DNA of 64,000 nt from Niallia sp. FSL W8-0635. Lineage in GTDB: Bacteria; Bacillota; Bacilli; Bacillales; Cytobacillaceae. The stretch is from the NCBI RefSeq assembly GCF_038007965.1, contig NZ_JBBOYD010000001.1:846501-910500 (forward strand). The letters run 5' to 3'. A program made the position numbers and the translations under genes. Below, in pieces: positions 22,505 to 47,140 of this stretch; position 1 is the stretch's first letter; each line of letters opens with the position of its first letter. Below the pieces are notes generated by a model, which had not been told where the DNA came from, made no database searches, and saw only the letters and a list, made by a program, of their open reading frames with translations.

Positions 22505-22752
22505 CTGCTATCCCCACCTTTAATAATATTTGTAATCCGTTACGCATTGTTGCACCTTCTTCGTTGTTATTTAGAGTTAGCAAACTCTATAAAAAGAGAT
22601 TAATTGAAAGAGATGGAGGTGTCGAATTGGTCAGAGGGTATGATTGTATTGGGCTTTTTACAGATATAGGAATAAAGACAATAAGAGGAAGTTTTACTGA
22701 AATGGGCATTAGATCCATGACTTGAAAAATATCAAAAATTAATGATTTTCGT

Positions 22753-22758
22753 TATAAT
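22753..22758 (+). promoter_or_regulatory. -10 box TATAAT of the leader promoter
   Basis: A consensus TATAAT lies 7-9 bases before the first structured leader element. No good -35 is seen at 17 bp. TTGAAA is present but ~25 bp away. Confidence 0.5.
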
Positions 22759-22764
22759 ATAGGT

Positions 22765-22848
22765 AGCAGTGAAGGCGTTCACTGTGGGATATAGGTAGTA
22801 TCCATCCGACTCACTCTTCCACAGGGATCATCGGGTGGATATTTTTTT
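22765..22848 (+). ncRNA. Structured leader element 1 (attenuator-like) before the DISARM/BREX operon
   Basis: Three helices compete. H1 is CAGTGAA/TTCACTG (22767-22784). An anti-terminator-like helix is CTGTGGGA (22782-22789) with TTCCACAG (22817-22824). The terminator is TATCCATCCGA (22799-22809) with TCGGGTGGATA (22831-22841) followed by seven T. The second helix overlaps H1 and traps the left terminator arm, so the structures are mutually exclusive. The core GTGGGATA...TATCCA recurs in element 2. Confidence 0.6.
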
Positions 22849-23048
22849 ATGCTTTCTTTTTATTTTTAGAAAAATCTATTTATTTTCTAAATCAAGAATT
22901 GATATTTGTCTATCAATAACTTTAGAATTTCGTGATTTTTAGGAGTATCCCCAAGTACGTATATAAACTTACAAACTGTGGGACATTTCCTATTTTCAAA
23001 TAGAATATAAGATTAAGTCTTATACAAATGTAAGATCAACAGCAGACA

Positions 23049-23120
23049 GATAAGATGCCCAAAAGTGGGATACAAGCAATATCCACGTTCTTATCACTTA
23101 TAAGAAGGGTGGATATTTTT
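23049..23120 (+). ncRNA. Structured leader element 2 (attenuator-like), related to element 1
   Basis: GATAAGA (23049-23055) can pair with TCTTATC (23089-23095). GTGGGATA (23065-23072) can pair with TATCCAC (23080-23086) with one bulge. The terminator pairs 23079-23086 with 23109-23116, plus an inner 7-bp stem (23088-23094 with 23100-23106), followed by five T. It ends 120 bp before the first gene of the operon. Core sequence and spacing match element 1. Confidence 0.6.
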
Positions 23121-23242
23121 CATGTATTAAAAGAGTAACAATAATTACTAACCTATAAAACCAGAATTTGGTTGTGTTACTTAAGAACTAGTTATAAAAT
23201 AAAGATAAAGTATAAAAAAAGTAAGAACATCGAGGTGATTCT

Positions 23243-23491
23243 ATGGATATAAAAATCTTTCAGAAGACACAAAGAGATTTAGCAGCGACTATAAATGTTG
23301 TAATAGATAAATATTGGGAAGATGGAATAAGTGAAAATGAAATGATAGAAATTGTTCAGAAGTTATATAGCAATAATGATAGTAAGTTCTTGAAGGATGA
23401 CCAATTTACTACTGTACTGCGTCAACAATGCGGTAAGCGCAGGTTAGAAGTGATTAGTAAGGTGTTGAACATTACCGTGCAACATCGTTAG
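23243..23491 (+). CDS. Small operon leader protein (resembles TIGR04540 family)
   Basis: 82 residues, ATG after a GAGGTGATT site. The pattern TQRDLAATINVVIDKYWEDG, then LYSNND, then LRQQCGKRRLEVISKVL resembles the small TIGR04540 proteins of Firmicutes, which have no assigned function. The first ~20 residues (ATINVVIDKY) echo the N-terminus of the helicase encoded next (QTVNILIDKY), so the two may share a docking surface or an origin by duplication. It is the first gene after the double attenuator and 14 bp before the SF2 helicase. Confidence 0.65.
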   Translation: MDIKIFQKTQRDLAATINVVIDKYWEDGISENEMIEIVQKLYSNNDSKFLKDDQFTTVLRQQCGKRRLEVISKVLNITVQHR

Positions 23492-23505
23492 ATTGAGGTG
23501 TGGAA

Positions 23506-25251
23506 TTGAATACTTTTTTAACAGAAAATGAAATAAGACAAACTGTAAATATATTAATAGACAAATATAACGTTAGTGATACGATGCTAATTAAATTTCT
23601 GGGTACAGATAAATACTTGCAAATTAACAAGATGCTAAATGATTTAGAAGAAGATGACCTAGATAAAAATAAATTAGCACGGATGGTTGTCATTGAGAAA
23701 GGTACATACCTGTTTTCAGGTAGTAATAATAACATCAGGGAACTAAGGTCGTATTTATTAAAACAAATTGATAATAAGACACTAAGTCAATTGTACGAAA
23801 GAAATCCAATAAGCAACAGGAAAATTCAATCCCCTTCATATATGCCAAATGCTTTAGCAGAAAAGAGATGGTCAATGGGAGGAAAATGGCCAAGAGACTT
23901 TGTTCAAACGCTTGGTTTTCCTTTGATTTTTTCAGGTATTTCAATTCCAAAGGACCATAGCACAGACCCTATTCAAGATATTGAACCAAGAAAAATGGTT
24001 CCGCCATTAGTCGAATATCAAAAAGGTCTAAAACAAAAGATGTTGTCTGTTCTGAATCAAGAAAAAGAAAAGACGAGATGCGTTGTTACTTTACCGACAG
24101 GTGGGGGTAAAACTAGAGTAGCAGTTGAAAGTTTCATAGATTGGATGCAACCCCGTTTTAATGAAGGAAAGTATTTATTATGGATTGCCCAAGGTGAAGA
24201 ACTTTGTGAACAAGCAATATCATGTATATCGGATATGTGGCAAGAGAGAGAGTTTCCTGAGACATTGAGAGTTTATCGTTTTTTTGGCGGTAAGAAAATT
24301 AAAGAAGAGGATTTAATCGGTGGAGCTGTAATTGCAAGTATTCAACAATTATATACCCGAATCCAAAGTGAAGATAAAGCATTAGATGAAATATTAGCTA
24401 ATTGTGGTGCAATGATTATTGATGAAGCACATCATGCTACGACAAAGAGCTATGAATTACTTATCAATAAAGCTAAGGAATTAGTAGGTGAAGATCTCTT
24501 TCCTATATGTGGGTTAACTGCTACACCAGGTCGAAGTAATGAAGAAACTATGACCCTTGTTGAACAATTTGAAGCTTATTTAATTCACCCATCTTTACCA
24601 GATATGAAGCGCTATGAAGTAAATCCTCTCTTATACTTTAGGGAAGAAGGATATTTAGCTGAACCATTGTTTTTACTTCATGAAGATGGTGAAGAGATTG
24701 AAGTTACAAACGATATGATGGATAGTGAACAAGATGATATAAATAACGAATTCCTTAATATTTTAGCAAAAGATGAAAAAAGAAATTTTCAAATAATAGA
24801 GTATATGATGGATATAGCAGTAGGTTCATCTTCTTTAGTCTATGCATGTACCGTTGAGCATGCGGAATTCCTAGCATTAATGATGAATTCAGTTGGGAGA
24901 AAATCAGCTGTTATTTCTGCAGATACTCCAAAACCTATTAGACGAATGCATATTTCGGCGTTTAAGAAAGGTGAAATAGAATTCTTATTTAACTACGGAG
25001 TGTTAACAACAGGATTTGATGCTCCAAAAACAGATCATATTCTTATTTGTCGTCCAACTTCTAGTATTATTCTTTATGAGCAAATGGTAGGGCGGGGACT
25101 AAGAGGGGAAAAATTTGGCGGTACCAAATACTGTAAAGTTGTTGATTTCTCTAGAAATATAAAACGTCATGGAGAACCTCTTGCCTATGCTAGATTTATA
25201 AAAGAATGGCAGGTTAAAGAGGTAAAGGACTTTGATGGGGTGATGGTATGA
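23506..25251 (+). CDS. SF2 DEAD/DEAH helicase of the DISARM-BREX operon
   Basis: 581 residues from TTG 23506, which has GAGGTG five bases upstream. The GTG at 23500 overlaps that site. The ~150-residue N-terminus is novel. The core has Walker A LPTGGGKTRVA (Lys202), IIDEAHHAT (306-309), GLTATPGR, TTGFDAP and QMVGRGLRG, as in RadD/YejH-like and restriction-type SF2 helicases, plus a final KVVDFSRNIKRHGEP. It overlaps drmA by 4 bp (ATGA), so it belongs to the same translational unit. It is not part of the classical DISARM or BREX type 3 gene sets and is probably a locus-specific extra motor. Its function is unknown. Confidence 0.85.
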   Translation: MNTFLTENEIRQTVNILIDKYNVSDTMLIKFLGTDKYLQINKMLNDLEEDDLDKNKLARMVVIEKGTYLFSGSNNNIRELRSYLLKQIDNKTLSQLYERNPISNRKIQSPSYMPNALAEKRWSMGGKWPRDFVQTLGFPLIFSGISIPKDHSTDPIQDIEPRKMVPPLVEYQKGLKQKMLSVLNQEKEKTRCVVTLPTGGGKTRVAVESFIDWMQPRFNEGKYLLWIAQGEELCEQAISCISDMWQEREFPETLRVYRFFGGKKIKEEDLIGGAVIASIQQLYTRIQSEDKALDEILANCGAMIIDEAHHATTKSYELLINKAKELVGEDLFPICGLTATPGRSNEETMTLVEQFEAYLIHPSLPDMKRYEVNPLLYFREEGYLAEPLFLLHEDGEEIEVTNDMMDSEQDDINNEFLNILAKDEKRNFQIIEYMMDIAVGSSSLVYACTVEHAEFLALMMNSVGRKSAVISADTPKPIRRMHISAFKKGEIEFLFNYGVLTTGFDAPKTDHILICRPTSSIILYEQMVGRGLRGEKFGGTKYCKVVDFSRNIKRHGEPLAYARFIKEWQVKEVKDFDGVMV

Positions 25252-28200
25252 AACCAGGGGCTACGAAATTAGAAAAATATTTAAAGTCAAGTCAAGAGAA
25301 CTCAATGTCTGTTTCTGACTATATGGAGATAGATAGTAAATGGACAAGTCGTACTTTAAAAAGGATAGTTGATGAACACCCGGATTTATTTCAGATAACA
25401 GAAGGTAAAGTAACATTATTATCAAAAGAACCTGTTAATTATGAAGGATATAAAGAAACAAGATCTGAGATAGTAAATAAATTAGAAAAATTTCTGGTTG
25501 GACCTTTTGATGAAAACGAGGTTCTAGGCAAAAGAAAAAGACCAATGGCTTTATACTTAACGGGAAAACTTGTACCTTTTGGTTCATCGGCAAATGTTAT
25601 AAATGAGGCTGATCTGGATATTCAAACGAATCAGCTGACTGAAGACGAAAAGGTTGATGAATACTTAAGTAATCGTGACATGTTCCGTCCTTCCAGTATG
25701 GGTTTTAGCTTTAAGATGAAAAAGCTAGGGAAAGTAACTATAAATGCAGGTTGGGCGATGTATTTAGGGGAATCTCATGAAAGATCCCAGAAAAAAGAAA
25801 CATGGACAGTGGACCTGAAATCAGATGTTACGAAAATATTAGAAAACAAAAATGCTGATTCAGATCCTGCCCGAGTAAAATATTCTGTAATGAAGAGAGA
25901 TGGAATTTATCATGTAAGTATCTTCCTATATAACTCTTATCAGAGGGATGATCAGTATCCGAAACAGGATGAAATTATGTTTCAAACAAAATTGTCAATT
26001 AGTTTTGAAGAAGATAATATGGCAATTTTCACTTCAAAGGCCGATCGATTTAATGTTGCGGATGAATTACTATATCGTGATTTTAAGGAATTAGCAATTG
26101 GCCATGGGGTAGGTGTGGATTGGAATATTGAGAATGGAAAAGTGAATATAGAATCCACTTGGCTTCCTTTCTATGAGTTACCAGCAGTAGAACATACGAC
26201 ATTTGAAGGATATTCTTTTTCCATGAGAGACCTTAGCAGGATGTCAGCTACAGAACTAAATGATTATTTATCAATTATACCAAAACAATATAATAGATGG
26301 CTAGATTTTCAGTCTGATGAAATTAAGGACTTGGAAGTACATTTAAAAAAAGAAGCGGAAGAGAACATAAAAAAAATCAGGAAAATAATTCAGCGAATTG
26401 AAAATGGTATTAAATTCATATCAAAATCAGATGATTGTATTGGGAAACAAGCTTTCCAATTTGCTAACAAGTGTATGATGTTGCAACGTGCTCACACGAA
26501 GGTGTCGTTGGAATATAGATCATCCAATAAAAGAACTAGGCCCATTCATGATGGGAAATGGCGTTTGTTTCAAATTATGTTTTTGCTTATGAGTATTGAT
26601 GGTGTCTCTGATAAGAACCACGAGGACAGAGAAATGGTAGATTTAATTTGGTTTCCGACAGGTGGAGGAAAGACTGAAGCATACCTAGGAGTAGCTGCAT
26701 ATCTAATGGCATTTAGAAGACTAACTTCGGATATTTTTAATGTGGAAGAGTATGCCGGTGTGACTGTGTTTATGCGTTACACTTTACGTCTTCTAACCAC
26801 CCAACAATTCCAACGTGCAACCGCACTAGTTTGTGCAGCAGAATATATTCGAGGAGAACAACCACATAAATATGGTACAGTGCCTTTTAGTATTGGACTT
26901 TGGATTGGTAATGACTCATCACCAAATCTATTGAAAGATGCTAGTGAAAAAATGGATGAGATTAGACGAGGAAAAGAAGTTCTAAAAGGAAATCCAATGC
27001 AACTCACACATTGTCCATGGTGTGGAACGGAATTATCACCTGATGACTATCATATTACTGAAAAAACTCAGAAAATCAGCTGTCATTACCCTCACTGTGA
27101 GTTTTATGGTGATTTAGGGCTCCCTGTTTATACTGTTGATGAAGAGATATACAAAAGGGTTCCAACTATTATTATCGGTACAGTTGATAAAGTTGCTCAA
27201 CTACCTTGGAAAAATAATATGTACGAGCTTTTCGGACAGAAAAATTTCTATCATCCAGAAAAAGGATTTATTTATGAAGATAAGGAAACGAAACGTGGTT
27301 GGGAGAGGATTGACCGATTAAAACCACCGGAGTTAATCATTCAGGATGAACTTCATTTAATTTCAGGTCCGCTTGGTTCATTAACAGGGCTTTATGAAGT
27401 AGCCGTAGATTTATTATGTCAACAAAATGGGATAGGTCCAAAAATTATCGCTTCCACAGCTACCATACGTGGTGCAGATGAACAAGTCAAAGCATTGTAC
27501 GGTAGAGAGGTAACGCAATTTCCACTAGCAGTACAAAAATCAAATGATAACTTTGTATCTTACTCATTAAAAACGAAGGACAAACCCGGACGTTTATATG
27601 TTGGAATTTGTGCACCTGGTGTCAGTGGGAAAATCCAATCAATTCAAACATATGCAGCTTTGACAACAATTACACGTGATTCAAAATCTGAGTTTATTGA
27701 TCCATATTGGACAATGTTAGGTTATTTTAATACAGTCAAAGAACTTTCTGGTATGTTAACTACATTTAAAGATGAAATACCTACGCGGTTAAATATGTTG
27801 GACAGTAGTAGCCATTTTTCACATGAATTAAATGTGGAAGAAATGACAAGTAGAAAAAAAGCCAAAGAAATACCAGAGTTGCTGAATAAAATGGAGCAAA
27901 CAGTTAACGAACAAGGCGTGTTAGATGCTGTTTTAGCAACAAATATGATTTCTGTTGGGGTTGATGTGAATAGACTTGGAATTATGGTTATGCATGGACA
28001 ACCAAAAACAACTTCAGAATATATACAGGCGACAAGTCGGGTTGGAAGGGAATATCCTGGATTAGTATTAACTATCTTCAATTCCATGCGTTCACGAGAT
28101 TTATCACATTATGAACGTTTTAGGGCCTATCATCAAACAATCTATCGTAATGTTGAAGCAATGAGTGTTACGCCATTTTCAATAGGAAGTAGAAAAAAGG

Positions 28201-28577
28201 GACTAACTGGTGCGTTTATAGGTTTCTTAAGACAGTCGCTCATTGAAATAAGTAACGAAAAGAGTGCCAATAAATTTTATAATTCTGAAAGAGTAGAAGC
28301 ACTGAAAAATAAGTTTGTTGAACGCATTTCTAAGACGAATTCTTGGGAGAAAGTAGAAATAGAAGAACACCTAACAGGGTTTCTGAAATGGTGGGAAACT
28401 ATGTCAGATAAGTATCAGGAACAATTAAGTTATAGATTAAGTCAATACAGTAAAAACCACTTATTAAAACAGATTACTGAAAAAGCAAAAACGAAAGAAT
28501 CCAAACCAGCAATGATGTCGCTAAGAAATGTTGAAGGTGAAATTAAGGTGGAAGAGATGTGGTTTAAAGATGAGTAA
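25248..28577 (+). CDS. drmA: DISARM helicase DrmA
   Basis: 1109 residues. N-terminal ~450 residues are specific to the family. The helicase core has FPTGGGKTEAYLG (Lys475), the unusual DELH box QDELHLISGPLGS (D700-H703), STATIRGAD, and TNMISVGVDV with ATSRVGRE. A zinc finger CPWCGTELSP...CHYPHC is inserted between motifs. The TPFSIGSRKKGLTGAF region after motif VI is typical of DrmA. DISARM is a restriction-modification-like phage-exclusion system, and DrmA works with DrmB as its core. Start codon overlaps the SF2 helicase and the end overlaps drmB by 8 bp, indicating coupled translation. Confidence 0.9.
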   Translation: MKPGATKLEKYLKSSQENSMSVSDYMEIDSKWTSRTLKRIVDEHPDLFQITEGKVTLLSKEPVNYEGYKETRSEIVNKLEKFLVGPFDENEVLGKRKRPMALYLTGKLVPFGSSANVINEADLDIQTNQLTEDEKVDEYLSNRDMFRPSSMGFSFKMKKLGKVTINAGWAMYLGESHERSQKKETWTVDLKSDVTKILENKNADSDPARVKYSVMKRDGIYHVSIFLYNSYQRDDQYPKQDEIMFQTKLSISFEEDNMAIFTSKADRFNVADELLYRDFKELAIGHGVGVDWNIENGKVNIESTWLPFYELPAVEHTTFEGYSFSMRDLSRMSATELNDYLSIIPKQYNRWLDFQSDEIKDLEVHLKKEAEENIKKIRKIIQRIENGIKFISKSDDCIGKQAFQFANKCMMLQRAHTKVSLEYRSSNKRTRPIHDGKWRLFQIMFLLMSIDGVSDKNHEDREMVDLIWFPTGGGKTEAYLGVAAYLMAFRRLTSDIFNVEEYAGVTVFMRYTLRLLTTQQFQRATALVCAAEYIRGEQPHKYGTVPFSIGLWIGNDSSPNLLKDASEKMDEIRRGKEVLKGNPMQLTHCPWCGTELSPDDYHITEKTQKISCHYPHCEFYGDLGLPVYTVDEEIYKRVPTIIIGTVDKVAQLPWKNNMYELFGQKNFYHPEKGFIYEDKETKRGWERIDRLKPPELIIQDELHLISGPLGSLTGLYEVAVDLLCQQNGIGPKIIASTATIRGADEQVKALYGREVTQFPLAVQKSNDNFVSYSLKTKDKPGRLYVGICAPGVSGKIQSIQTYAALTTITRDSKSEFIDPYWTMLGYFNTVKELSGMLTTFKDEIPTRLNMLDSSSHFSHELNVEEMTSRKKAKEIPELLNKMEQTVNEQGVLDAVLATNMISVGVDVNRLGIMVMHGQPKTTSEYIQATSRVGREYPGLVLTIFNSMRSRDLSHYERFRAYHQTIYRNVEAMSVTPFSIGSRKKGLTGAFIGFLRQSLIEISNEKSANKFYNSERVEALKNKFVERISKTNSWEKVEIEEHLTGFLKWWETMSDKYQEQLSYRLSQYSKNHLLKQITEKAKTKESKPAMMSLRNVEGEIKVEEMWFKDE

Positions 28578-30279
28578 AGAAATGGGGACATTGCGCCCTT
28601 CACAGTTAATCTATCACTTTGGACCAGGTTCTATTGTAGATATGATGAATCAAAGTGTAATCGTTATGGCAGTAGATTTGTGGAATACACGTTATACACC
28701 ACATGAAACAGATGAACGAATTACTAGGGCATTGAACATAGATTATATAAAATTACTAAACGAAAGACCAGACTCTGTTAAAGTCAAAGCAACGCCATTT
28801 CCGAAGTGGAAAATTTGTCCAAGTTGTAACATGATGACAGATTATCATAATACTTATTGTTATCATTGCAAACAAAAAGGTGAAGAAATTGAGCTTTATC
28901 CCAGCAGATTTGTGATGTCTTGTAAAAATGGTCATATTAGTGATTTCCCTTATATGGAATGGGTTCATCAAGGAAAATCCTGTACTAGTGATAAGCCCAT
29001 CCTGAAATTTATTCGTCAAGGTGATAGTGGTTCCTTATCAGATCTTTCTGTACAATGCGTAAAGTGTAAAGAGAAACAATCATTAGGTAAAATCATGCAA
29101 AAAGATTCATTAAAATCAATTTTACCATCTTGTACTGGTGAAAGACCATGGATTGGTGATACAGAATCATGCAACGAATCTATGGAAACTTATTTACGGG
29201 GAGCATCTAATATATATTCGCCAGCAGTGACAAGCTTTTTACAGATTCCGCTGAGTGAAGAAAATAGTGACCCACTGGTTTCTAAAGTGCTAGAAAATAA
29301 ACCAGCATTGATAAAAGCAAAAGAAAAGGGATCAAATTCTTTCCAAACATTATTAAGCATACTTGATTTTAACGAATCGGATGCAGATAAAATTGAAAAA
29401 ATTCTGTCTGGAGAATATGAAGAAGAAATAAGTTTCCAGTCGATAAGAAAACAGGAATGGAATACGTTATTCCAAGGAGATACGGATGATACTCATGATA
29501 CTGGTTATAAATCGAGTTCAGTTAGTATTCATGAAAAAATGAAGCCTTATTTTTCAGCTGTTCATAAAATAGAATCATTGCCGGAAATCCAAGTTTTACA
29601 GGGGTTTACACGAATTGAATATTTAGATCGATTTGAATTCGCTGAATCAAAGGACTTGATTCCAGTTATGAAAGATAAGAACAACAAGTGGCTGCCGGGG
29701 ATACGAAATAATGGCGAAGGTATCTTCTTTAACTTTGATAAGTATAAACTAAAAGAATGGGAACGTAATACAAATCATTCAGAGGTAACATCTGATATCA
29801 TTTCGAGATATAATCGGAATCGGGATCAACTTGGTTACTCAGCGTTATCGATAGAAAGCAAACATTTGCTTCTGCATACGTTTAGTCATGCATTAATAAA
29901 GGAATTAGCCGCGCATTCGGGTTATTCGACAACATCATTGAAAGAACGAATCTACTGTAGTAATGAAATGCAAGGAGTACTCATTTATACGGCATCTGGT
30001 GATTCTGAGGGAAGTCTAGGTGGGCTAATAGAACAGGCTGACCCAGATAAACTTTATCCAATTTTTATTCGGGCTATTGAACGTATGATGTATTGTTCTT
30101 CTGATCCAAACTGTTCTGAAGGAGAATTTAAATTTCAATCAACTGCAAATGGAGCTGCATGCCATTCTTGTTCTTATGTTTCAGAAACATCTTGTGAGTG
30201 GGGAAACCAATTGTTAGATCGTCGTCTACTAATTAACATTAATCCGGGGGAAGATACTGGATTCTTTAATCAGCTGTAA
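28570..30279 (+). CDS. drmB: DISARM protein DrmB (DUF1998)
   Basis: 569 residues from the ATG at 28570, inside the end of drmA. An in-frame ATG 14 codons upstream would deepen the overlap and extend beyond the conserved LRPSQLIYHFGPGSIVD start. Zinc-binding cysteines appear as CPSCNMM...CYHC near residue 70. PSRFVMSCKNGHISDFPYM is the signature N-terminal block. The DUF1998 end has LLLHTFSHALIKELA, GVLIYTASGDSEGSLGGL and a Cys cluster CHSCSYVSETSCEWGN. DrmB pairs with DrmA in all DISARM classes. There is no drmC-like PLD gene after it. The next gene is brxF. Confidence 0.92.
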   Translation: MSKEMGTLRPSQLIYHFGPGSIVDMMNQSVIVMAVDLWNTRYTPHETDERITRALNIDYIKLLNERPDSVKVKATPFPKWKICPSCNMMTDYHNTYCYHCKQKGEEIELYPSRFVMSCKNGHISDFPYMEWVHQGKSCTSDKPILKFIRQGDSGSLSDLSVQCVKCKEKQSLGKIMQKDSLKSILPSCTGERPWIGDTESCNESMETYLRGASNIYSPAVTSFLQIPLSEENSDPLVSKVLENKPALIKAKEKGSNSFQTLLSILDFNESDADKIEKILSGEYEEEISFQSIRKQEWNTLFQGDTDDTHDTGYKSSSVSIHEKMKPYFSAVHKIESLPEIQVLQGFTRIEYLDRFEFAESKDLIPVMKDKNNKWLPGIRNNGEGIFFNFDKYKLKEWERNTNHSEVTSDIISRYNRNRDQLGYSALSIESKHLLLHTFSHALIKELAAHSGYSTTSLKERIYCSNEMQGVLIYTASGDSEGSLGGLIEQADPDKLYPIFIRAIERMMYCSSDPNCSEGEFKFQSTANGAACHSCSYVSETSCEWGNQLLDRRLLININPGEDTGFFNQL

Positions 30280-30327
30280 CTACTTATAAATGAAAAAGTA
30301 ATATGGCATACACAAATTTGTTATTAA

Positions 30328-30341
30328 AATATACGTATATT
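30328..30341. promoter_or_regulatory. 14-bp perfect palindrome in the drmB-brxF gap
   Basis: AATATACGTATATT lies in the only sizeable gap (90+ bp) inside the first half of the operon, where a second promoter for the BREX genes could be. No clear -35/-10 pair is visible. Confidence 0.3.
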
Positions 30342-30443
30342 AAAGTATTAATAGTATGAATTGTTTACATGGAAAACGGGATACTAAATAGCTTGGATTT
30401 AAAAAACGTCATTTTTGACTATATTAGAAAAAGGATGTTTCAA

Positions 30444-30884
30444 GTGACTATAAACAGTTTTAAAAAAGAAATTCAAGAAATGGAACAATGGTGGCATAAA
30501 TTGATATTTTTATGCAATAGGAATGCACAATTTAATACTAAGATACCTATTACAGAACAATTCGAAAAAGTAAACGTTAATCTTATCTTAAGTCAAGGAT
30601 TAATAAACTTAGCTAAAAATAAATATCCGCTATATGTTGAAGATATACTTTTAGAGGCTATTACAAATAGAAAAAAAGTATATCTCCTTCAACACATTGA
30701 TATTCTTTTTGACCCAGTATTACAAGTTCATCCTGTACGTTTATTGGAGAACATTAGTAAGACATACAAAATAGTTGTTGAATGGCCAGGGAAATATGAG
30801 GATGATCAACTGTACTATGCTGAATATGGGCATCCTGAATATTTTTCTTGTCGTGAATTTGAAGGGAATATTATTATGAAGTAA
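30444..30884 (+). CDS. brxF: BREX type 3 protein BrxF, with degenerate P-loop
   Basis: About 146 residues from GTG 30444, with AAAAAGG nine bases upstream. The frame is open back to ATG 30369, but neither that ATG nor the one at 30435 has a usable ribosome site. The second half matches BrxF: VYLLQHIDILFDPVLQVHPV, RLLENIS, VVEWPGKYED and YYAEYGHPEYFSC. The family is annotated as a P-loop NTPase, yet the Walker A position reads LIFLCNRNAQFNTK, without the GxxGxGK glycines. ATP binding is thus probably lost. It sits 19 bp before brxC, as expected in type 3 BREX. Confidence 0.8.
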   Translation: MTINSFKKEIQEMEQWWHKLIFLCNRNAQFNTKIPITEQFEKVNVNLILSQGLINLAKNKYPLYVEDILLEAITNRKKVYLLQHIDILFDPVLQVHPVRLLENISKTYKIVVEWPGKYEDDQLYYAEYGHPEYFSCREFEGNIIMK

Positions 30885-30903
30885 AGATTTGGAGGGGAGT
30901 ATT

Positions 30904-33900
30904 ATGCTTCGTTATGATGAACTAATTTCATTCGATCCAGTTGAATCCGTTGTCCAATTAAGAGAAGCGGATGATAAAAGTCGTGCTATCTCACTATTAA
31001 AAACATATGTTATCTCAGATAATATGGCTGAAAAATTAATGAATGACATATTTGAAAACTTACAATTTGAACGTATGGTTGATAACAAAGGGATACTTAT
31101 CGTTGGTAACTATGGATCCGGTAAATCTCACTTAATGAGTGTAGTATCAACCATTGCGGAATTACCAGGTTCTAGTGAACATTTGCGTAACAAACAAGTA
31201 GCGGAAAAAGCAACAGAAATAGAGGGAAAATTTCAGGTTATCCGTGCAGAATTTGGTGCAGTGACAATGCCTCTTCGTGAAATTATTTGTCGCCAATTAG
31301 AAAAAGGATTAGCAAAGATGGGGATAGACTATTCTTTTCCTGCGGCAGATCAAGTGACAAATAATAAAGATATGATGTACGAAATGATGGAATTATTCCA
31401 TGAAGAATATCCTGATAAAGGATTATTACTTGTTATAGATGAACTTCTTGACTACTTACGTGGAAGGAAAGAACAAGATCTTACGCTAGATCTAGGCTTT
31501 TTACGTGAAGTTGGCGAGGTCTGTAATAACACTCGTTTCCGTTTTATTTCTGGTGTACAGGAGATGCTTTTTGATAATCCGAAATTCAGCTTCGTAGCAG
31601 ATTCACTACGCCGTGTAAAAGAACGATTTAAAGAAACTCGTATTGTTCGTGAAGATATTGCTTTTGTAGTGTCAGAAAGGCTATTAAAGAAAAATGATGA
31701 ACAAAAAGCTCTTGTTCGTGAACACTTAGGGAAGTTTAAGAAACTGTATAGTGGGCTATCAGAAGAACTAGAAACCTACGTTAATTTGTTTCCAATTCAT
31801 CCTGCATACCTTGAAATGTTTGAGAGAGTACATATTGGTGAAAAACGAGTTGCTCTACAAACAATTACAGGAGAAATTAAAAAATTACTATCTGAAGAAG
31901 TACCTGAGGATTCAACAGGACTAATATCTTTTGATAGGTATTGGACGTATATCGAAGGAGATTCCTCTTTACGTTCAGATGAGCGTGTAAAGTTTATTAC
32001 AGATAAAGTCGAGACGTTGAAGGGTATTATTCAATCAAGTGTGAAAAGGCAGTATAAAGCCATGGCAACACAGATGGTAAATGCCTTGGCGGTATTTCGA
32101 TTAACTACCGAAGACCTAAAAACACCTATTGGATTAAACTCTGATACACTCAGAGATAAATTATTTCTAAGTCAGCCTTCCTTATTGGAATTTGAAGATG
32201 AAGCAGCTGATTTTTTGAAAACAACAATTGAAGCATCAATGAAAGATTTAAGAACAGCAGCTAGTTTTCAGTATATTTCTTTGAATAATGACAATGGCCA
32301 GTTTTATATCAACATCGATGAGTCAGTACCCGTGGATGAGCTTATTCGTCAACGTGGAGACGGTTTGAATGACAGTCAATTAGATAGTTATTATTTTGAT
32401 GTGTTAAAACAGGCAACTGAAGTATCGGAGACTGCTGCCTATGTTTTTGGATATAAAATCTGGCTACATGAAATTCCTTGGATGGATAGGAGAGTAAAAC
32501 GAGAAGGTTATTTATTCTTCGGGGCACCAAATGAGAGATCAACTGCCCAACCTGAAAGAGATTTTTACATATATATGCTTCAAGCATTTGAAGAACCGGA
32601 TTTTAAAGATGAACAAAAGGAAGATGAAGTATTCTTCCGTTTAAAGAAAAAAAATGATACATTCATACAATTGTTGCGCTTATATGGGGGTGCAACAGAG
32701 ATGTACAATGATACGACTACTAATAAAAAATTATATAAGCCTAAATTGGAAGACTATAAAAAGAAGTTAGTAAAATGGATTAAAGAAAATTTCGTTGATG
32801 CTTATGAAATTGTATATCGAGGAAAAAGTGCTGGAGTACTTGAACATGGGATGTTCTTGCCAAGTAACCCAGACACATTAGTAGAACTTGTAGATTCAAT
32901 TTCACAAGACTTGCTTTCTCAGTGGTTTGAAGTGAAATATGAAGAATATCCTTCATTTAGAAAGCTTGAACATTCATTTTTGACGAAAAAGAATATACAC
33001 ACTTATGTTAAAGATGCTTTAGATTATTTGAATGGCCGTAAAACAAATCAAGGGGAAGCAATTCTTGATGGCTTAATCTTACTTGATCAGCAAGGGAACC
33101 CTACAACAATGAATTCAGGTTATGCAAAATGGGTAACCGACTCGCTTGATAGAATAGGTAATGGACAAGTATTAAACCAGAGTGAACTAATCGAGGTAAT
33201 TAATACATCTCAAGGGACTCCAGATCAACGAATTACTAAAAGGTTTACCATGGAACCTGAATTACTAGTTGTAATCCTTGGTTCATTGATTCAAGATGGA
33301 CAACTTGTAGTAACAGTTAAGGGAACACAGTATGAGGCGATGAATTTTAGCGAATTTATCCGACTTCCTATCCAAGATATTACTTATTTTGATCATATTA
33401 AAAAACCAACTGGATTACCTGTTCGTGAAGTACAAGCATTATCAGATCTATTCGATTCAATCAAGATTGATTTCTCGAATCAAGAAAGAGTTGATTTTGT
33501 TATTAAACAAATTATATCTGGAGCAAAGAAGGCTACTAATCGTACAGTTGAAATGATTGCAAGTATACGCAATAAATTTCATGTATGGGATGGTCCTTTG
33601 TTTACACAAGAAGAAATAGAAGAAAAGCATGAAAAGCTTTCAAGCCTCAATGATTTCTTGCAAGGGTTGCAGGTGTACAATACACGGGCTAAAATGATGA
33701 ATTTAAAATTCAATATGGAACGAATTGAAAAAGAAAAGGCAAATCTGTTACTGTTGGATACATTAGATAATTTACAAAAGAAGATTAATGAATACACTAA
33801 AGTAGCTGATTACCTTGTGAAAGCTAAGTTTATTACTTCCCCTAGTAAGAATTGGATTGACGATGTCGATGTGTCACTAGATAACTTAAGCATTGCATTG

Positions 33901-34605: not shown

Positions 34606-34617
34606 GAGGGGAAATAA

Positions 34618-37404: not shown

Positions 37405-37416
37405 AAGGTGAAATAG

Positions 37417-39369
37417 ATGCTCGGATGGCGTAAACAAATTATTGATAAAATTCAATTACAGCAAGCATCACTAATTTTAGTGTCAGATAAAGATAATTTA
37501 TTGAACGATGAATTTGTCTTAAAAGAATTGCAATCACACGGGTTTGATACGGTTAGATTTGAAGATAGTATTACATTTCGTTATCTGTATGAGCAAAAGT
37601 ATCGCACTAATCATTCTGAACGTAAATTAGTGATTTATGTGAATGAGGATGTTGTATTTCCATACGAATTTCAAAGAAAAGCATTGAACGTTAAGGTTAG
37701 TTTGCAAACTTTATTTCCTAAGTTCTCATTAAATATTATCCGACAAATGGATAGAGACGATCTTGATGCCTTGTATACTGTTCATCAACAGTATCAAGGC
37801 ACTCCATCTGAGAGAGAAACATTAGAGTATATTATTAAATTCGTATATAAAATACCTTATGACACGATAGATAGTGAATCTGATTTATATAAGACTTTAT
37901 TGTCAATACATTATCAATCAAAAGAGCTACCCAATGTAGTTCAGGAGTTTCTTTATCGAAAGTGGAAAAGTCTTCCAGCTTTTACGGGCTTGTCATTAAA
38001 AAAGATGATTCAATCACGAACTTTCTTTTATCATTATATAGGTCAAAGATGGGATAATTATGTCAGACAATACCTTCAAGTGAAAAAAGGACAAATTAAT
38101 GATTCAACTGATGTATATGAAAGTAATCCGTTGGCTAATCATGATGTAAGAAGGTTAATGAATGATTTATTCCTTGAAGGGCAAATATCTAAGGTGAAAG
38201 AAGTATTAATACCAGATGCTATTCCTGATTGGATGCGAATAGGAATTGAAGAAGCATCTAATAAAGAGACAGTTGAGAATCAATTAAACTATTTACGTGA
38301 TAAAATATTAGATTGTTTATCAAGTGCCAATCAATATAAAGATTGGTTCCATATAAATGGATTAATTGCAGAATTTAAGCTAGTTTCCATGAAAAGTGAC
38401 ATCAATAAGACTATAATTGAAAAAACAATGAAAGATGTAAACGAAAAATTCATGGGGTGGATCGTAAATCAGTACCATACATTGACCAGTTTGCCACCTT
38501 ATCCAAAACCAAAACTTGTTCATCATCTTCCACATGTGATTAGTAAGGAAAGACAAGGTAATGAAAAAGTAGCGTTGTTAGTTCTTGATGGAATGAATTT
38601 TGTTCAATGGCGAGTGGTTCAGAAGTATTTGCAAGAGGAAGGTTTTTTATTTGAAGAACAACAAGTCTTTGCGTGGGTTCCAACTCTAACATCTGTGTCT
38701 CGTCAAGCAATCTTCTCAGGTAACGTTCCTTTAACCTTTAGCAATTCGATACAAACAACAACAGCGGAAGAAAGACTTTGGAAATCATTTTGGGAAAATC
38801 ATGGTGTCCTAAAACAATATGTTACCTATCAGAAAGGTCTTGGAAACGAAGATTATGATAAACATACAATCCAGGGTCTAACTAGAAAGTCATCCAAGGT
38901 ATATGGGGCAGTTATCGACGTGATTGATCAGTTAACACACCATGCAGTATTAGGAGAAAAGAGTATTTTTTCAAATCTTGCATTATGGTTAGAAACAAAC
39001 TATCTTGTCAATTTTCTATCGGATTTAATAGATGTAGGATATTCCGTATACCTTACATCTGATCATGGAAACACCAATGCAACTGGAATTGGTCGCGTGT
39101 CAGAAGGTGTACTTGTTGAACAAAAAGGAGAGCGAGTACGAATATATAATGATATGACGTTTTATGAAGATGCTGCATCTAAACTATCCTTACAAAAATG
39201 GCCTAGTATTGGATTACCTGAAAATTATCATGTTTTACTTGCTGGATATGGCCAAGCTTTTGTCCCTAAAAATCAATCAATTGTAACACATGGTGGAATT
39301 AGTATAGAAGAAGTAATTGTTCCTTTTGTAAAGGTACTAAAGAATAAGGGAAGTGGATTGGGTGAGTAA
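37417..39369 (+). CDS. pglZ: BREX phosphatase-fold protein PglZ
   Basis: 650 residues, GAAGGTGA site before the ATG. The PglZ domain (alkaline-phosphatase superfamily, metal-dependent) starts near 375 with VALLVLDGMNFVQWRVVQK. FAWVPTLTSVSRQAIFSG and the metal-binding VYLTSDHGNTNATG follow, and it ends with IVTHGGISIEEVIVPFVKV. The first ~370 residues are the helical family-specific arm. PglZ is the hallmark protein of BREX, essential for exclusion and usually for methylation. It overlaps the next gene by 8 bp. Confidence 0.92.
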   Translation: MLGWRKQIIDKIQLQQASLILVSDKDNLLNDEFVLKELQSHGFDTVRFEDSITFRYLYEQKYRTNHSERKLVIYVNEDVVFPYEFQRKALNVKVSLQTLFPKFSLNIIRQMDRDDLDALYTVHQQYQGTPSERETLEYIIKFVYKIPYDTIDSESDLYKTLLSIHYQSKELPNVVQEFLYRKWKSLPAFTGLSLKKMIQSRTFFYHYIGQRWDNYVRQYLQVKKGQINDSTDVYESNPLANHDVRRLMNDLFLEGQISKVKEVLIPDAIPDWMRIGIEEASNKETVENQLNYLRDKILDCLSSANQYKDWFHINGLIAEFKLVSMKSDINKTIIEKTMKDVNEKFMGWIVNQYHTLTSLPPYPKPKLVHHLPHVISKERQGNEKVALLVLDGMNFVQWRVVQKYLQEEGFLFEEQQVFAWVPTLTSVSRQAIFSGNVPLTFSNSIQTTTAEERLWKSFWENHGVLKQYVTYQKGLGNEDYDKHTIQGLTRKSSKVYGAVIDVIDQLTHHAVLGEKSIFSNLALWLETNYLVNFLSDLIDVGYSVYLTSDHGNTNATGIGRVSEGVLVEQKGERVRIYNDMTFYEDAASKLSLQKWPSIGLPENYHVLLAGYGQAFVPKNQSIVTHGGISIEEVIVPFVKVLKNKGSGLGE

Positions 39370-40078
39370 ACCAGTTGGATTTGATCAAAAGGTTTTGCTA
39401 AATCACCTGGATTATACAGCTAATCAAACTAAAAAGTATTCACGTAAAGAGATGTATACAATCTTGGACGGATATTTACGTGATGATATTACAGGTGCAA
39501 AATCAAGAAAGAATGCCATTACGATGTTGATGAAAATATGGTATCTAATTGATGCGGAATTGATACCAATTCGAGATGAAATTCTGGGTGAATTTAGCCA
39601 ATTAACCAATGAAGAAAGGCTTTTTGTACATTGGGGTTTAACGATTGCAGCTTATCCCTTTTTTAAAGATGTTGCTAATGAATTTGGGCGTTTATTCCAA
39701 TTACAAGATGAAGTTTCTAGTAAAGCAATTGGCAAGCGGATGAAAGAAGCGTACGGTGACCGCAGACGTGTTGAGGTTGCAACCAGTGCAGTGTTAATGA
39801 GCATGAAAGCTTGGAATGTTATTCAACCAGTAGGGAGACATAGCTATACAAAAGGCGAAAAGATTGTAATTACGAATCCACTAATCCAATCATTTCTTGT
39901 TCAGGTTATATTATTTGTTATGGAAAGTGATTCACTGCACGTTGATTTAATAGAGAATCATCAGTTATTTTTTCCATTCTACTGTGAATTAAATATCACA
40001 GAGTTACGGGAAAGAAAGATATTTTCTTTTCATCGCCAAGGGGTAAAAGAATTGGTAATTGAAAGAAATGCAATATAA
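39362..40078 (+). CDS. brxA: BrxA-like BREX protein
   Basis: 238 residues from GTG 39362, with AAGGGA about 10 bases upstream. A GTG at 39353 is too close to that site. Helical throughout: YSRKEMYTILDGYLRDDITG, AKSRKNAITMLMKIWYLI, then KRMKEAYGDRRRVEVATSAV and a final wing-like RHSYTKGEKIVITNP. In type 3 BREX the gene next to pglZ is brxA, a small DNA-binding protein with a NusB-like fold. The sequence similarity I can judge is modest, so the name rests partly on position. A terminator hairpin follows at once. Confidence 0.65.
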   Translation: MSKPVGFDQKVLLNHLDYTANQTKKYSRKEMYTILDGYLRDDITGAKSRKNAITMLMKIWYLIDAELIPIRDEILGEFSQLTNEERLFVHWGLTIAAYPFFKDVANEFGRLFQLQDEVSSKAIGKRMKEAYGDRRRVEVATSAVLMSMKAWNVIQPVGRHSYTKGEKIVITNPLIQSFLVQVILFVMESDSLHVDLIENHQLFFPFYCELNITELRERKIFSFHRQGVKELVIERNAI

Positions 40079-40111
40079 AAACCTTATTCAATTGTAGAAT
40101 AAGGTTTTTTT
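40078..40111 (+). terminator. Internal intrinsic terminator between brxA and brxHII
   Basis: 12-bp perfect stem (40078-40089 with 40097-40108), 7-nt loop and a run of seven T. The stem starts at the final base of the brxA-like stop codon. The next gene begins 16 bases after it on the same strand, so it probably lowers rather than ends expression of the last two genes. Confidence 0.8.
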
Positions 40112-40127
40112 AGTAATGGGGGATGAC

Positions 40128-43100: not shown

Positions 43101-43313
43101 CTTAATGTAAAACAATACGATAATCTAGGACTAATTGACTTTTCGAGTGAAAGATTTAATGGGGAGGAACGGTATATAGTATTAACATCAGACCCTTTTT
43201 TCAAGTTGAGCGATAGGGACCTAGAGGATTTGAATGATATTTTGGATAAGTTGAATGTTTATGTAGTGAAAGATGGGGAAGTTTTGAATGAATTTACTGT
43301 GAAAGCTCCGTAA
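40128..43313 (+). CDS. brxHII: SNF2-family helicase BrxHII / DrmD
   Basis: 1061 residues from ATG 40128, with GGGGGA just upstream. The in-frame ATG at 40116 has no site and sits against the terminator. SF2/SNF2 motifs: LADDPGAGKTIMAG (Walker A, ~121-134), DLVIIDEAHKMS (DEAH 222-225), LLLTATPHKGD, IIIFTESVDTLNYLEG and EQRMGRIHRIGQKNEVFIF. A helical insert follows motif III and a ~350-residue C-terminal extension is family-specific. BrxHII belongs to BREX type 3. Its close relative DrmD belongs to class 1 DISARM. Here it can be counted as either. It is separated from brxA by a terminator and leads directly into the caspase gene. Confidence 0.88.
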   Translation: MFYKGDIISSTYFPEAVEIKYCEHVEDFYILEAIGKDTNQYYELMIEQEKIKDFQQLNNKENDYIQASDVQKYIQYLLLQNEMKFSKTKALGNENLLPLPHQIEAVYGRMLQVPQTRFLLADDPGAGKTIMAGMLMKELKARLTVDRILILVPPLVLKQWQEELNQKFGLHFHIINRNIVNEYGGKNPFTENSFCLASMYWAIRDDVRALIQEASFDLVIIDEAHKMSAYTQGTTKKKVFRTKLYQLGEAILRKSEHCLLLTATPHKGDTENFRHLMKLIDEDVFSSKSMNERIQEKANPFIIRRLKENLNNFDGTPLFPKRTSKTIQFQLTDDELELYDAVTEYVTHYFNRAINNGSQSTAFAMMLLQRRLSSSIEAIYLSLRRRYNRLVKLYKQTDKERTRYLNKIKKLDTDNYLEESNEQQEQLNAQLEQSIDVVDIKELKKEILVLQGLIKQAEHIKLYTVERKYEELEETLFGINGILQHNEKIIIFTESVDTLNYLEGKLLKRVPQVSKIVGSFSMDKRRQQVEMFRNECQIMLATDAGGESINLQFCNQMINYDIPWNPNKLEQRMGRIHRIGQKNEVFIFNLVAKNTREGSVMVRLLEKMEKMRTDLGSDLVYDFIGEILEVEYDSLANLMEEAILNREKLDEVIEKMDKTLSEENKKLLKLVEEERMVEDKIDLSELKRQKNDWLVERIPKRSYTDFTSYILEKKRVRIHKSKDEKIMRIERLPKFIREQMPELQEEQIQSYRFTNSILAVSEDVPLITDIHPLFHIGLQLMKKELEGKSWQHYKLNANIPEKLHVEIYEITITDGTGKDLDKHIIHFAKRESGEIITLNSNWIFIYEFINHDFTVQSENVNKCRSEILRHAISIRQEVLSKREKQLNKMHSFLEKSFNQQYRDTLGKLEMYQQENIDNRNSALINQMNSKLVDLDMKKEERLGTINRQKNVSMKPPRKVLSLEVNPIGESKRVIASDYYDAVVNYEKENGRLNVKQYDNLGLIDFSSERFNGEERYIVLTSDPFFKLSDRDLEDLNDILDKLNVYVVKDGEVLNEFTVKAP

Positions 43314-43349
43314 TTGTTGGGAGTGACACAAAATACAAGGGGAGTTAAA

Positions 43350-44894
43350 ATGTCAAATGTTAAGGCGCTAATTGTAGGAGTTAGTAATTATTATCTTTCT
43401 GGTGCTAATGATTTACCTTTTTGTATGAATGACATTACTATAATGAAGAATGCTTTACTTAATGGTTTGAAATTAGACTACTCCGATATAATAACGTGTG
43501 GGAACTTAGGTGAATTAACGAAAAATGACTTTGAAAAAGCTTTTTCAGAAATGGTCACGCGAGCAACAAATAAGGATGATACACTAATTTTTTATTTTTC
43601 AGGACATGGAACCACATTAAAGGATAACCAACACTACCTTGTTTTTAGTGATGGACTTTTAAGCACTCAAAAGATTATTAGAAACCTTAAAGATATTCCA
43701 ATCAAGAGTAAGATCATTATATTAGATTGTTGCCACTCAGGGAACTTTTCTATTGATGGAACGTCGTCATTAAATATAGAAAAAACGGTCTCTGAGTTTC
43801 AAGGGGAAGGTTACGCAGTTTTAGCATCTAGTAAATCCGAAGAAGTCTCATTTGGACATCCAGATAAACCTACAAGTCTATTTACAAGCTTTTTATGTGA
43901 TGCACTTCAGGATAGACTATTAATTAGAGATGGAAAAGTATCATTAAATGATATACAAAGACTAGTATCGTTATATTTGGATATATGGAATAAAAAAAGT
44001 ACATATTTAAAACAACATCCAATTTTTAGGGCTAATATGGGTGGTACAATTTATTTTAAAGTACAAGAGTTTCAGCCATTCTATTCAAAAAATGTTTACC
44101 TTAAGTCAGATAAGTATATTATCTATAAAGTTAAACCACTTCATACTGGCCAAGCAAAGAGATACGCTACAGAAGTAATTTTAAAGGAGCCTTTTTCTTT
44201 TGAAGAGATTAATAAAATTTATAATGAAATAGTTAATGTGGTTAAGAATGTGGAGGTGTATAACAATAAGAAATCTAAAGACAAATGGACTGGCAAAATA
44301 GCTAATATTATTTGGGTTTACTTTGGTCGGGATGAAAATGATATGATAAGTAGTAATTTTATTTGTCATACTACTTGGGTGGATGACAAACAAGACAAAG
44401 CATGGTGGTATAAAGTTAATAACAGAAATACTTTTATATTAGATGGGACCCATTTTAATGTACATAGTTACTACGAGCATCTAAAGATTTTTAATCAGAA
44501 TAATTTAGGAAACAAAAATGAGTTAATAATTAAAACTAAGGAAATTTTATCGCATTTAGTAACTTTGGCTGAGAATGTAATCAGTTTATTTAATGAGTAT
44601 AAAAATGGTATACTAACCGAAGTTGAGCTTGTCAAACAAATGGAACCCTTTATTCAAGAAATAAATGAGTATTATATTAAAAGTCAGGATCTAGATATAT
44701 CACCAATTGATATCAAACTTTGGAGTGAAGCATGCTCGATATTATTCGGAACAGTATTTGACTTTACACTATATTACAATAAGCAATACATGTCACAAAG
44801 AACTAGTGATAATAGAAAATTATGTATGGAGATAGCTATAAAACAGTATTATGCTGATTTAGAAAGTGTCGGGAATTTAGAACAGTTATTATAA
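43350..44894 (+). CDS. Caspase-like (C14/metacaspase) protease, last gene of the defence operon
   Basis: 514 residues from ATG 43350, which has AAGGGGAG seven bases upstream. Upstream in-frame TTG starts are rejected. The first ~240 residues are a caspase-fold domain: KALIVGVSNYYLSGANDLPF, the catalytic His86 in IFYFSGHGT and the catalytic Cys128 in IIILDCCHSGNFS, with a full GYAVLASSKSEEVSFGHP strand after it. Both catalytic residues are intact. The remaining ~270 residues are unrecognised, rich in aromatic residues with a helical end. Caspase-like proteases serve as suicidal effectors in several bacterial defence systems. It starts 36 bp after brxHII on the same strand and precedes a terminator, so it is the likely last gene of the operon. 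An activation link to BREX or DISARM is inference. Confidence 0.85.
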   Translation: MSNVKALIVGVSNYYLSGANDLPFCMNDITIMKNALLNGLKLDYSDIITCGNLGELTKNDFEKAFSEMVTRATNKDDTLIFYFSGHGTTLKDNQHYLVFSDGLLSTQKIIRNLKDIPIKSKIIILDCCHSGNFSIDGTSSLNIEKTVSEFQGEGYAVLASSKSEEVSFGHPDKPTSLFTSFLCDALQDRLLIRDGKVSLNDIQRLVSLYLDIWNKKSTYLKQHPIFRANMGGTIYFKVQEFQPFYSKNVYLKSDKYIIYKVKPLHTGQAKRYATEVILKEPFSFEEINKIYNEIVNVVKNVEVYNNKKSKDKWTGKIANIIWVYFGRDENDMISSNFICHTTWVDDKQDKAWWYKVNNRNTFILDGTHFNVHSYYEHLKIFNQNNLGNKNELIIKTKEILSHLVTLAENVISLFNEYKNGILTEVELVKQMEPFIQEINEYYIKSQDLDISPIDIKLWSEACSILFGTVFDFTLYYNKQYMSQRTSDNRKLCMEIAIKQYYADLESVGNLEQLL

Positions 44895-45076
44895 TTTATG
44901 ATAATTATAAAGGGGAATTTAGAAGATAGATTTTCTCCCGTCACGTCCTGAATTTACTCATACAAATTATTTTACACAAATTTTACGCATCACTTGCACT
45001 AAACCTTTTAAACTCAATATCTATTAAGCTTTTTCGACCCCGACCACCGGTATCATAAAAGTCAGTAATGACAAGG

Positions 45077-45105
45077 CTCCTACTCATTTGAGTGGGAGTT
45101 TTTTT
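45077..45105 (+). terminator. Terminator closing the defence operon
   Basis: CTCCTACTCA (45077-45086) pairs with TGAGTGGGAG (45089-45098), one G-T pair, 2-nt loop, then seven T. It lies 180 bp after the caspase gene. Confidence 0.8.
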
Positions 45106-46507: not shown

Positions 46508-46622
46508 ATATGGTTGGTTTCTCTGGTGGTGTCCTATTGATTGATGAAGCGTATAGCATAACAGCGAATGATTATAGCGATAGTTATGGGAAGGAAAGTC
46601 TTACTGAGTTAACAAAAGCTCT
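46498..46622. repeat. 125-bp direct repeat, copy A
   Basis: Identical to 51189-51313 (offset 4691), then diverging but similar for another ~30 bp. It contains the last 10 bp of the asparaginase gene and the 5' part of an AAA ATPase fragment. The two copies bracket the RHH/DUF2397/DUF2075 cassette. Confidence 0.9.
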
Positions 46623-47131: not shown

Positions 47132-47140
47132 TGTTATAAT
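47132..47140 (+). promoter_or_regulatory. Extended -10 promoter for the RHH gene
   Basis: TGTTATAAT (extended -10 with consensus TATAAT) lies 34 bp before the ATG at 47174. No clear -35. Confidence 0.5.

What the first reader, a model, noticed from the sequence alone, without database searches (positions are those of the whole stretch)
22740..44894. Composite DISARM-BREX operon with shared methyltransferase and SNF2 helicase
One co-oriented, largely overlapping gene train holds DrmA, DrmB, BrxF, BrxC, PglX, PglZ, a BrxA-like protein and BrxHII, plus an extra SF2 helicase and a small protein in front. PglXI and BrxHII of BREX type 3 are relatives of DrmMI and DrmD of class 1 DISARM, so the locus is a complete BREX type 3 set and at the same time a class 1 DISARM set lacking only DrmC. 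That points to a merged machine rather than two neighbours.
Basis: partly seen in the sequence, partly recalled or inferred. Interest (0 to 1): 0.9.

Follow-up and report, generated by a model that had tools for sequence, protein, structure and literature searches.

The report
DISARM cassette docked onto BREX operon
A bacterial anti-virus operon joins parts of two known defence systems: the DNA-sensing pair of DISARM sits in front of a complete BREX type 3 system, behind a small head gene also found at the front of other defence operons, which suggests that such systems are built from swappable blocks.

Summary
DrmA and DrmB precede a complete BREX type 3 set (BrxF, BrxC, PglX, PglZ, BrxA, BrxHII), all co-oriented, at 23243-43313. 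The reading "class 1 DISARM lacking only DrmC" fails: the methyltransferase shows no similarity to the DrmMI it was compared with, and both it and the SNF2 helicase are of BREX3 type.

The composite recurs: read whole in four genomes of different genera; six more are inferred from equal contig lengths. DrmA and BrxC distances correlate over these ten (r = 0.76). Window and G032 operons look like one transferred unit under purifying selection.

It is not obligatory. Twenty-four other BREX3 loci show no DrmA in the region read. The same DrmAB branch also precedes a SNF2/type III restriction operon (8 loci) or has no methyltransferase seen beside it (2).

New here: a TIGR04540 gene, mostly with a conserved promoter-like block, heads this operon, plain BREX3, BREX1, the SNF2/type III operon and its DrmAB version. 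DrmAB looks like a cassette docked between head and core. Whether DrmAB borrows BREX methylation is untested. No paper found describes the composite; TIGR04540 is in none.

The parts
23172..23227 (+). conserved promoter-like block (TTGTGT-N17-TAAAAT, then AGTATAAAAAAAGTAA) in front of the head gene
   Evidence: the 16-nt block begins 25-38 nt before TIGR04540 in 6 of 6 fetched genome loci (one mismatch in G032); in the E. hirae plasmid with one mismatch; not in M. foraminis. Promoter function is inferred
23243..23491 (+). TIGR04540 family protein, 82 aa, operon head gene of unknown function
   Evidence: NCBIfam 98.8 bits, cut-off 50
23500..25251 (+). SF2 helicase, RadD-like, companion of DrmAB (GTG start)
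   Evidence: ResIII and Helicase_C; RadD of PDB 4e-25; below NCBI's RadD cut-off (128 of 720 bits); at 61-77% identity near DrmAB without BREX in 3 genomes
25248..28577 (+). DrmA helicase
   Evidence: NF038325 1031.6 bits, cut-off 950; PDB 7s9v DrmA 5e-166; motifs PTGGGKT, DELH, STAT, SRVGR present
28528..30279 (+). DrmB
   Evidence: NF038324 493 bits, cut-off 240; PF09369
30280..30434 (.). seam between the DrmAB cassette and the BREX3 core
   Evidence: 157 nt in G032 and E. clarkii; holds an inverted 851-aa gene in G016
30369..30884 (+). BrxF (start probably 30435, by length of homologues)
   Evidence: NF033453 103 bits, cut-off 50
30889..34605 (+). BrxC type 3 (DUF6079)
   Evidence: PF19557 1222.7 bits; PDLC02482 1300 bits
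34618..37404 (+). PglXI adenine methyltransferase of BREX type 3
   Evidence: PDLC02541 1147 bits; no similarity to DrmMI
37417..39369 (+). PglZ of BREX type 3
   Evidence: NF033449 618 bits, cut-off 250
39353..40078 (+). BrxA-like DNA-binding protein
   Evidence: PDLC02437 163 bits
40116..43313 (+). BrxHII SNF2 helicase of BREX type 3
   Evidence: 54-70% identical to BrxHII of plain BREX3 loci
43314..44894 (+). caspase-like protease joined to the operon end (ATG at 43350 probable)
   Evidence: PF00656 76.8 bits; His98 and Cys140 invariant in 38 aligned sequences, window included; conserved in G032
45073..45102 (+). terminator-like hairpin downstream of the operon
   Evidence: 13 pairs and a T run; 1 found, 0.6 expected in shuffles

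Best explanation
This is a BREX type 3 operon with a DrmAB cassette (DrmA, DrmB and a RadD-like SF2 helicase) docked between a TIGR04540 head gene and the complete BREX3 core, plus a caspase-like gene added at the end.

Shown by sequence: the anatomy, its recurrence, similar divergence of all modules between two genomes, purifying selection, and the independent existence of both modules.

Inferred: the BREX3 core methylates the host at the PglX site and blocks unmarked phage DNA by itself. DrmAB with its helicase is an optional second arm that loads on single-stranded or 5'-overhang phage DNA, and the arms are co-expressed from the head promoter. The caspase-like protease is a back-up suicide effector. 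Whether DrmAB uses the BREX methylation as its self mark is open.
For: Whole order seen in the window, G032, E. clarkii and G016. Window against G032: dS 0.03-0.19 for every operon gene from TIGR04540 to the caspase, dN/dS 0.10-0.32, PglX apart. DrmA against BrxC distances over 10 loci: r = 0.76, p = 5e-5; without G032 r = 0.63, p = 3.5e-4 (6 of the 10 are inferred from equal contig length).

Modules exist apart. TIGR04540 precedes plain BREX3 by 12-14 nt in G866 and G930. TIGR04540-DrmAB stands before a SNF2/type III operon in G687 and G568 (DrmA is broken in G568), and a relative of that operon (28-52% identical) stands behind TIGR04540 without DrmAB in E. hirae. DrmAB of Serratia is activated by DNA with a 5' overhang (PMC9142583, abstract and passages).
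Against: No expression or phage data. No terminator-like site lies in the seam, but the BREX part could have its own promoter: 3 promoter-like sites were found in 30200-30500, 1.6 expected. In G016 an inverted gene lies in the seam, so one transcript is not universal. G016, E. clarkii and 22 of the 24 plain BREX3 loci show no TIGR04540 in the regions read, so the head is not general. On the DrmA tree the BREX3 link needs 2 changes. On the BrxC tree one inferred hybrid (P0164) lies beside known plain loci.
Confidence: 0.55

Rival explanations
1. Obligate merged machine: DrmAB needs PglX for its self mark and BrxHII as its SNF2 partner, and neither half works alone.
For: No second methyltransferase or SNF2 gene inside the operon in the four hybrids read, apart from a second PglX in G032. 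12 of 14 close DrmAB loci read (DrmA at least 52% identical) stand before a methyltransferase operon. Correlated distances.
Against: 24 BREX3 loci show no DrmA in the region read. Two close DrmAB loci (G105, G1048) have no methyltransferase among the neighbours scanned. BrxC 91% identical to the window's (V. dokdonensis) has no DrmA row with that contig length among the 120 listed. An inverted gene lies in the G016 seam.
Confidence: 0.2
2. Two independent systems that are neighbours in a mobile defence island, joined by chance and kept together by co-transfer; no functional contact.
For: The island carries an integrase and a Replic_Relax protein. Both modules occur alone. Salirhabdus has DrmA, DrmB, DrmC and DrmMII beside BREX3. 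Co-transfer alone can give correlated distances.
Against: Same placement (DrmAB upstream, same strand) in front of two different cores. Hybrids in two DrmA clades. Tight spacing and purifying selection.
Confidence: 0.25

Closest known systems
BREX type 3
   Same: Full set BrxF-BrxC-PglXI-PglZ-BrxA-BrxHII in the same order as in plain loci; above the curated cut-offs of the BREX-3 models that were hit (BrxF, PglZ)
   Different: DrmAB, a RadD-like helicase and TIGR04540 in front; caspase-like gene behind. The 2026 BREX survey (PMC12839542; abstract, section 35 part 1 and passages read) has no 'DISARM', 'Drm' or 'caspase' in its main text
DISARM (core DrmAB)
   Same: DrmA and DrmB above NCBI's cut-offs; DrmA similar to the solved DrmA 7s9v
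   Different: No DrmC, DrmMI or DrmMII match among those shown for the operon proteins; SNF2 helicase is of BREX3 type
ARMADA (PMC12458937; abstract and passages read)
   Different: Here the YprA-family protein passes NCBI's DISARM DrmA model and BrxC, PglZ and BrxF are present; BrxC and PglZ have 0 occurrences in that paper
BRC composite (BREX + HerA/FtsK + Dpd; PMC12839542, abstract and passages)
   Same: A hybrid of BREX parts with other defence systems
   Different: Other partner modules; 'Drm' has 0 occurrences in that paper
TIGR04540-SNF2(HKD)-DUF4391-Mod-Res operon
   Same: Same head gene and, in G687 and G568, the same DrmAB placement
   Different: Core is a SNF2 helicase with type III restriction, not BREX

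Membership tests
BREX type 3 | BrxF | tested here: met
   NF033453 103 bits, cut-off 50
BREX type 3 | BrxC of DUF6079 type | tested here: met
   PF19557 1222.7 bits, cut-off 23
BREX type 3 | PglXI methyltransferase | tested here: met
   PDLC02541 1147 bits
BREX type 3 | PglZ of BREX-3 type | tested here: met
   NF033449 618 bits, cut-off 250
BREX type 3 | BrxA and BrxHII in operon order | tested here: met
BREX type 3 | host methylation and phage exclusion | not testable with these tools
   needs wet work
DISARM class 1 | DrmA and DrmB | tested here: met
   NF038325 and NF038324 above cut-off
DISARM class 1 | DrmMI methyltransferase | tested here: not met
   no DrmMI model among the 25 hits shown of 28; E = 0.8 to a DrmMI of 1421 aa
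DISARM class 1 | DrmD helicase | tested here: not met
   376 bits, cut-off 610; a typed class 1 DrmD is 29% identical, BrxHII of plain BREX3 54-70%. PADLOC does name it DrmD, but with a model that also hits plain BREX3
DISARM class 1 | DrmC (PLD nuclease) | tested here: not met
   no DrmC or PLD match shown for the operon proteins scanned
ARMADA | YprA helicase of the ARMADA clade with BrxA-like insert | not tested
   no ARMADA model at hand; DrmA passes NCBI's DISARM DrmA cut-off
TIGR04540 family | NCBIfam model above curated cut-off | tested here: met
   98.8 bits, cut-off 50

The most novel reading that the evidence does not exclude
TIGR04540 with its promoter block is a common docking head for methyltransferase-guided defence operons in Bacillota (BREX1, BREX3, SNF2/type III). 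DrmAB is a portable front-end that plugs in between this head and whichever core follows, and borrows that core's methylation as its self mark.
Probability: 0.25. Interest if true: 0.8.

Novelty: new variant of a known kind. Interest (0 to 1): 0.6.

Why it matters
If right, DISARM and BREX are not closed systems but sets of blocks with a standard way of being joined. The same DrmAB branch in front of two different methyltransferase cores, with each kind of core also found without DrmAB behind the same head gene, is a natural experiment. It makes two open questions directly testable: what marks self for DrmAB, and what the TIGR04540 head does.

Tried and rejected
Searches of viral contigs with DrmA, TIGR04540 and the promoter block found nothing, and with BrxC one weak match that was not followed. 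TIGR04540 has no match in phage records. The plasmid search with DrmA gave identities below 60% only; 40 of 86 records were listed and none was opened for context. Of 7 plasmid records with BrxC one was opened; no DrmA is annotated beside its BREX3. Rfam gave no family at its gathering score in the window, and three weak matches below it in 22500-23300. No phase-variation tract was found: one 23-nt, 2-copy repeat in brxC.

Rejected: that the caspase is part of the core. No match was found in E. clarkii (an empty search without a positive control) or in G016. Its relatives (296 proteins, 120 listed) are of similar length in many Bacillota, with neighbours not seen, so it is treated as an accessory. 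Rejected: PADLOC's 'DrmD' label as evidence for DISARM, because a plain BREX3 helicase scores the same. The SNF2 gene some 10 kb downstream of DrmB in G1048 was checked as a possible partner: it belongs to a MotA/MotB/EH_Signature/SNF2 cluster behind two transposases. G568 was left out of the DrmA tree because its DrmA is broken into pieces; it is counted among the 8 type III loci. G081 is counted among the 24 plain loci although its BrxC is split.
Full report
WHAT IS THERE. The stretch holds, all on the + strand: TIGR04540 protein (82 aa), SF2 helicase, DrmA, DrmB, BrxF, BrxC, PglX, PglZ, BrxA, BrxHII and a caspase-like gene. Spacing is tight: 3 overlaps, 6 gaps of 0-37 nt, and one seam of 89 nt between DrmB and BrxF, or 155 nt to the BrxF start that homologues use. 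DrmA keeps its helicase motifs and the caspase its His and Cys.

WHOSE GENES ARE THEY. The methyltransferase and SNF2 helicase are of BREX3 type. BrxHII is 54-70% identical to helicases of BREX3 loci without DrmAB (broken copy in G131 left out). Against 17 loci with an SNF2 gene near DrmA it gives 27-31% with 15 helicases, one of them typed as DrmD, and 38% with two that were not typed. PglX shows no similarity to a class 1 DrmMI, a protein of 1421 aa, and in the 17 loci one weak match of E 1e-5. PADLOC's DrmD label is not diagnostic: the same model gives 1202 bits here, 1249 bits on a plain BREX3 helicase and 180 bits on a class 1 DrmD. So this is not a class 1 DISARM set.

HOW COMMON. In the window's family (193 genomes), DrmA (E up to 1e-50) is in 13 genomes and BrxC (E up to 1e-100) in 10 genomes, 12 loci. 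Both are in 3 (window, G016, G032), each with one DrmA joined to one BrxC; G032 also has an unlinked DrmA and two BREX3 loci without DrmAB. In a class sample of 398 genomes, DrmA is in 23; BrxC type 3 gives 51 at E up to 0.001, of which 13 are full length (one split); both only in the window's genome. In order samples, DrmA (E up to 1e-150) is in 13 of 299 and BrxC in 7 of 231; the window and Salirhabdus have both. The hybrid was read whole in the window, G032, E. clarkii and G016. Of 31 BREX3 loci compared (E. faecium plasmid apart), 4 are hybrids, 1 (Salirhabdus) stands beside DrmA, DrmB, DrmC and DrmMII, 24 have no DrmA in the region read, and 2 (G043, G080) end too near a contig end to tell. 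These loci were gathered by search, not drawn at random.

OTHER LIVES OF THE SAME DrmAB. I read 14 loci with DrmA at least 52% identical to the window's: 4 precede BREX3, 8 precede a SNF2(HKD)-DUF4391-Mod-Res operon, and 2 (G105, G1048) have no methyltransferase among the neighbours scanned. No DrmC was matched beside any of the 14, but with one DrmC as the only BLAST query, so a remote one could be missed; E. clarkii and G1048 carry a PLD-SF2 helicase nearby. The SF2 helicase of the window also occurs near DrmAB without BREX in three genomes: G105, G511 and R. marisflavi (seen twice, as L048 and G1055).

INHERITED TOGETHER. On the DrmA tree the BREX3 label (10 rows, 6 inferred) needs 2 changes (shuffled mean 9.0, 0 of 500 as low) and the type III label (7 rows) 1. 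On the BrxC tree a 25-row branch (SH-aLRT 100) holds 9 rows with DrmAB, 16 of unknown neighbourhood and no known plain one; the tenth, P0164, lies in another branch with 3 known plain loci. DrmA and BrxC distances over the 10 hybrids correlate, r = 0.76, p = 5e-5; r = 0.63 without G032. Six of the ten are inferred only from equal contig length of DrmA and BrxC hits. Against strict linkage: of 16 BrxC clusters at 66% identity or more on contigs of 97 kb or longer, 4 share a contig length with a DrmA among the 120 listed. Window against G032 (another genus): dS 0.03-0.19 from TIGR04540 to the caspase, dN/dS 0.10-0.32, while PglX has been replaced by two others (dS 2.6 for the closer). So the operon probably travelled as one piece and is kept by selection; co-transfer alone would not prove a functional link.

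THE HEAD. The 82-aa gene is TIGR04540; no paper in the library holds that name. All 8 genes I found lie at the front of a methyltransferase operon, of five kinds: the hybrid (window, G032), DrmAB-SNF2-type III (G687, G568), plain BREX3 (G866, G930), BREX1 (M. foraminis plasmid) and SNF2-type III without DrmAB (E. hirae plasmid). Six of these come from the window or loci fetched for DrmA or BrxC and are biased; the two plasmid ones were all the hits in that collection. A promoter-like block begins 25-38 nt upstream in 6 of 6 of the former, is present with one mismatch in E. hirae and absent in M. foraminis. With up to 2 substitutions the block has 15 hits in 5.6 million bases (both strands added), 6 of them these; none of the other 9 has the -35/-10 pair. 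Each kind of core (BREX3, SNF2-type III) is therefore seen behind this head both with and without DrmAB: DrmAB looks like an insert between head and core.

HOW IT MAY WORK. Established for DrmAB of Serratia: it is autoinhibited, is activated by DNA with a 5' overhang, and its ATPase is lower on methylated DNA (PMC9142583, abstract and passages). Type 1 BREX components are needed to modify host DNA (PMC12839542, passages). Inferred here: BREX3 marks and excludes; DrmAB with the RadD-like helicase is an optional second arm against single-stranded or replicating phage DNA; the caspase-like protease is a back-up suicide effector. That DrmAB uses the BREX mark is possible (no methyltransferase of its own) but weakened by G105 and G1048.

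KNOWN OR NEW. Ten searches of open papers listed none that describes a DrmAB-BREX3 composite. Of the papers listed I opened four, in part: the YprA survey, the 2026 BREX survey, the DrmAB structure paper and PMC9716671; the passages seen do not mention it. The others were seen as listings only. Supplementary files were not searched. It is a new arrangement of known parts, with a head cassette that deserves study.

Noticed in passing
window 22740-22850 and 23040-23130: Two stretches that fold into terminator-like hairpins (z -3.55 and -3.33) before the operon head, each with a GGGATA...TATCC segment that could pair otherwise, like an attenuator; the second is degraded in G032.
   Followed up: partly
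window 7470-8573, 20445-21689: Phage-type integrase and Replic_Relax protein: the operon lies on a mobile island. G687 has the same three flanking genes (87-92% identical) with another DrmAB operon.
   Followed up: partly
L004/L005 (G032): Two different PglX genes (56% and 48% to the window's) stand in place of one in an otherwise 93-99% identical operon: specificity swap.
   Followed up: partly
G032 (L146/L147, L161): This genome carries three BREX3 loci.
   Followed up: no
L002:14094-16649, L136:1319-3832, L127:15331-18087: Large related proteins (837-918 aa, sigma-70-like in the two scanned) next to DrmB, in G016 inverted between DrmB and BrxF; the G016 one matches MzaA weakly.
   Followed up: partly
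L030:5709-8144: PLD-SF2 helicase in front of the DrmAB-BREX3 operon of E. clarkii; homologues near DrmAB in G1048 and G802 (in two pieces), 8 kb behind the operon in G016. Could replace DrmC.
   Followed up: partly
P0106-P0108: Proteins of about 1680 aa with both DrmA-like and MZB parts, perhaps fused DrmA-DrmB.
   Followed up: no
window 45500-50994: Asparaginase II-like, JetA-like (DUF2397, C-terminal part missing) and Schlafen-helicase genes behind the operon.
   Followed up: no
L136:8154-14557 (G1048): MotA/MotB/EH_Signature/SNF2 cluster, Zorya-like by recall, about 7 kb behind DrmAB.
   Followed up: no
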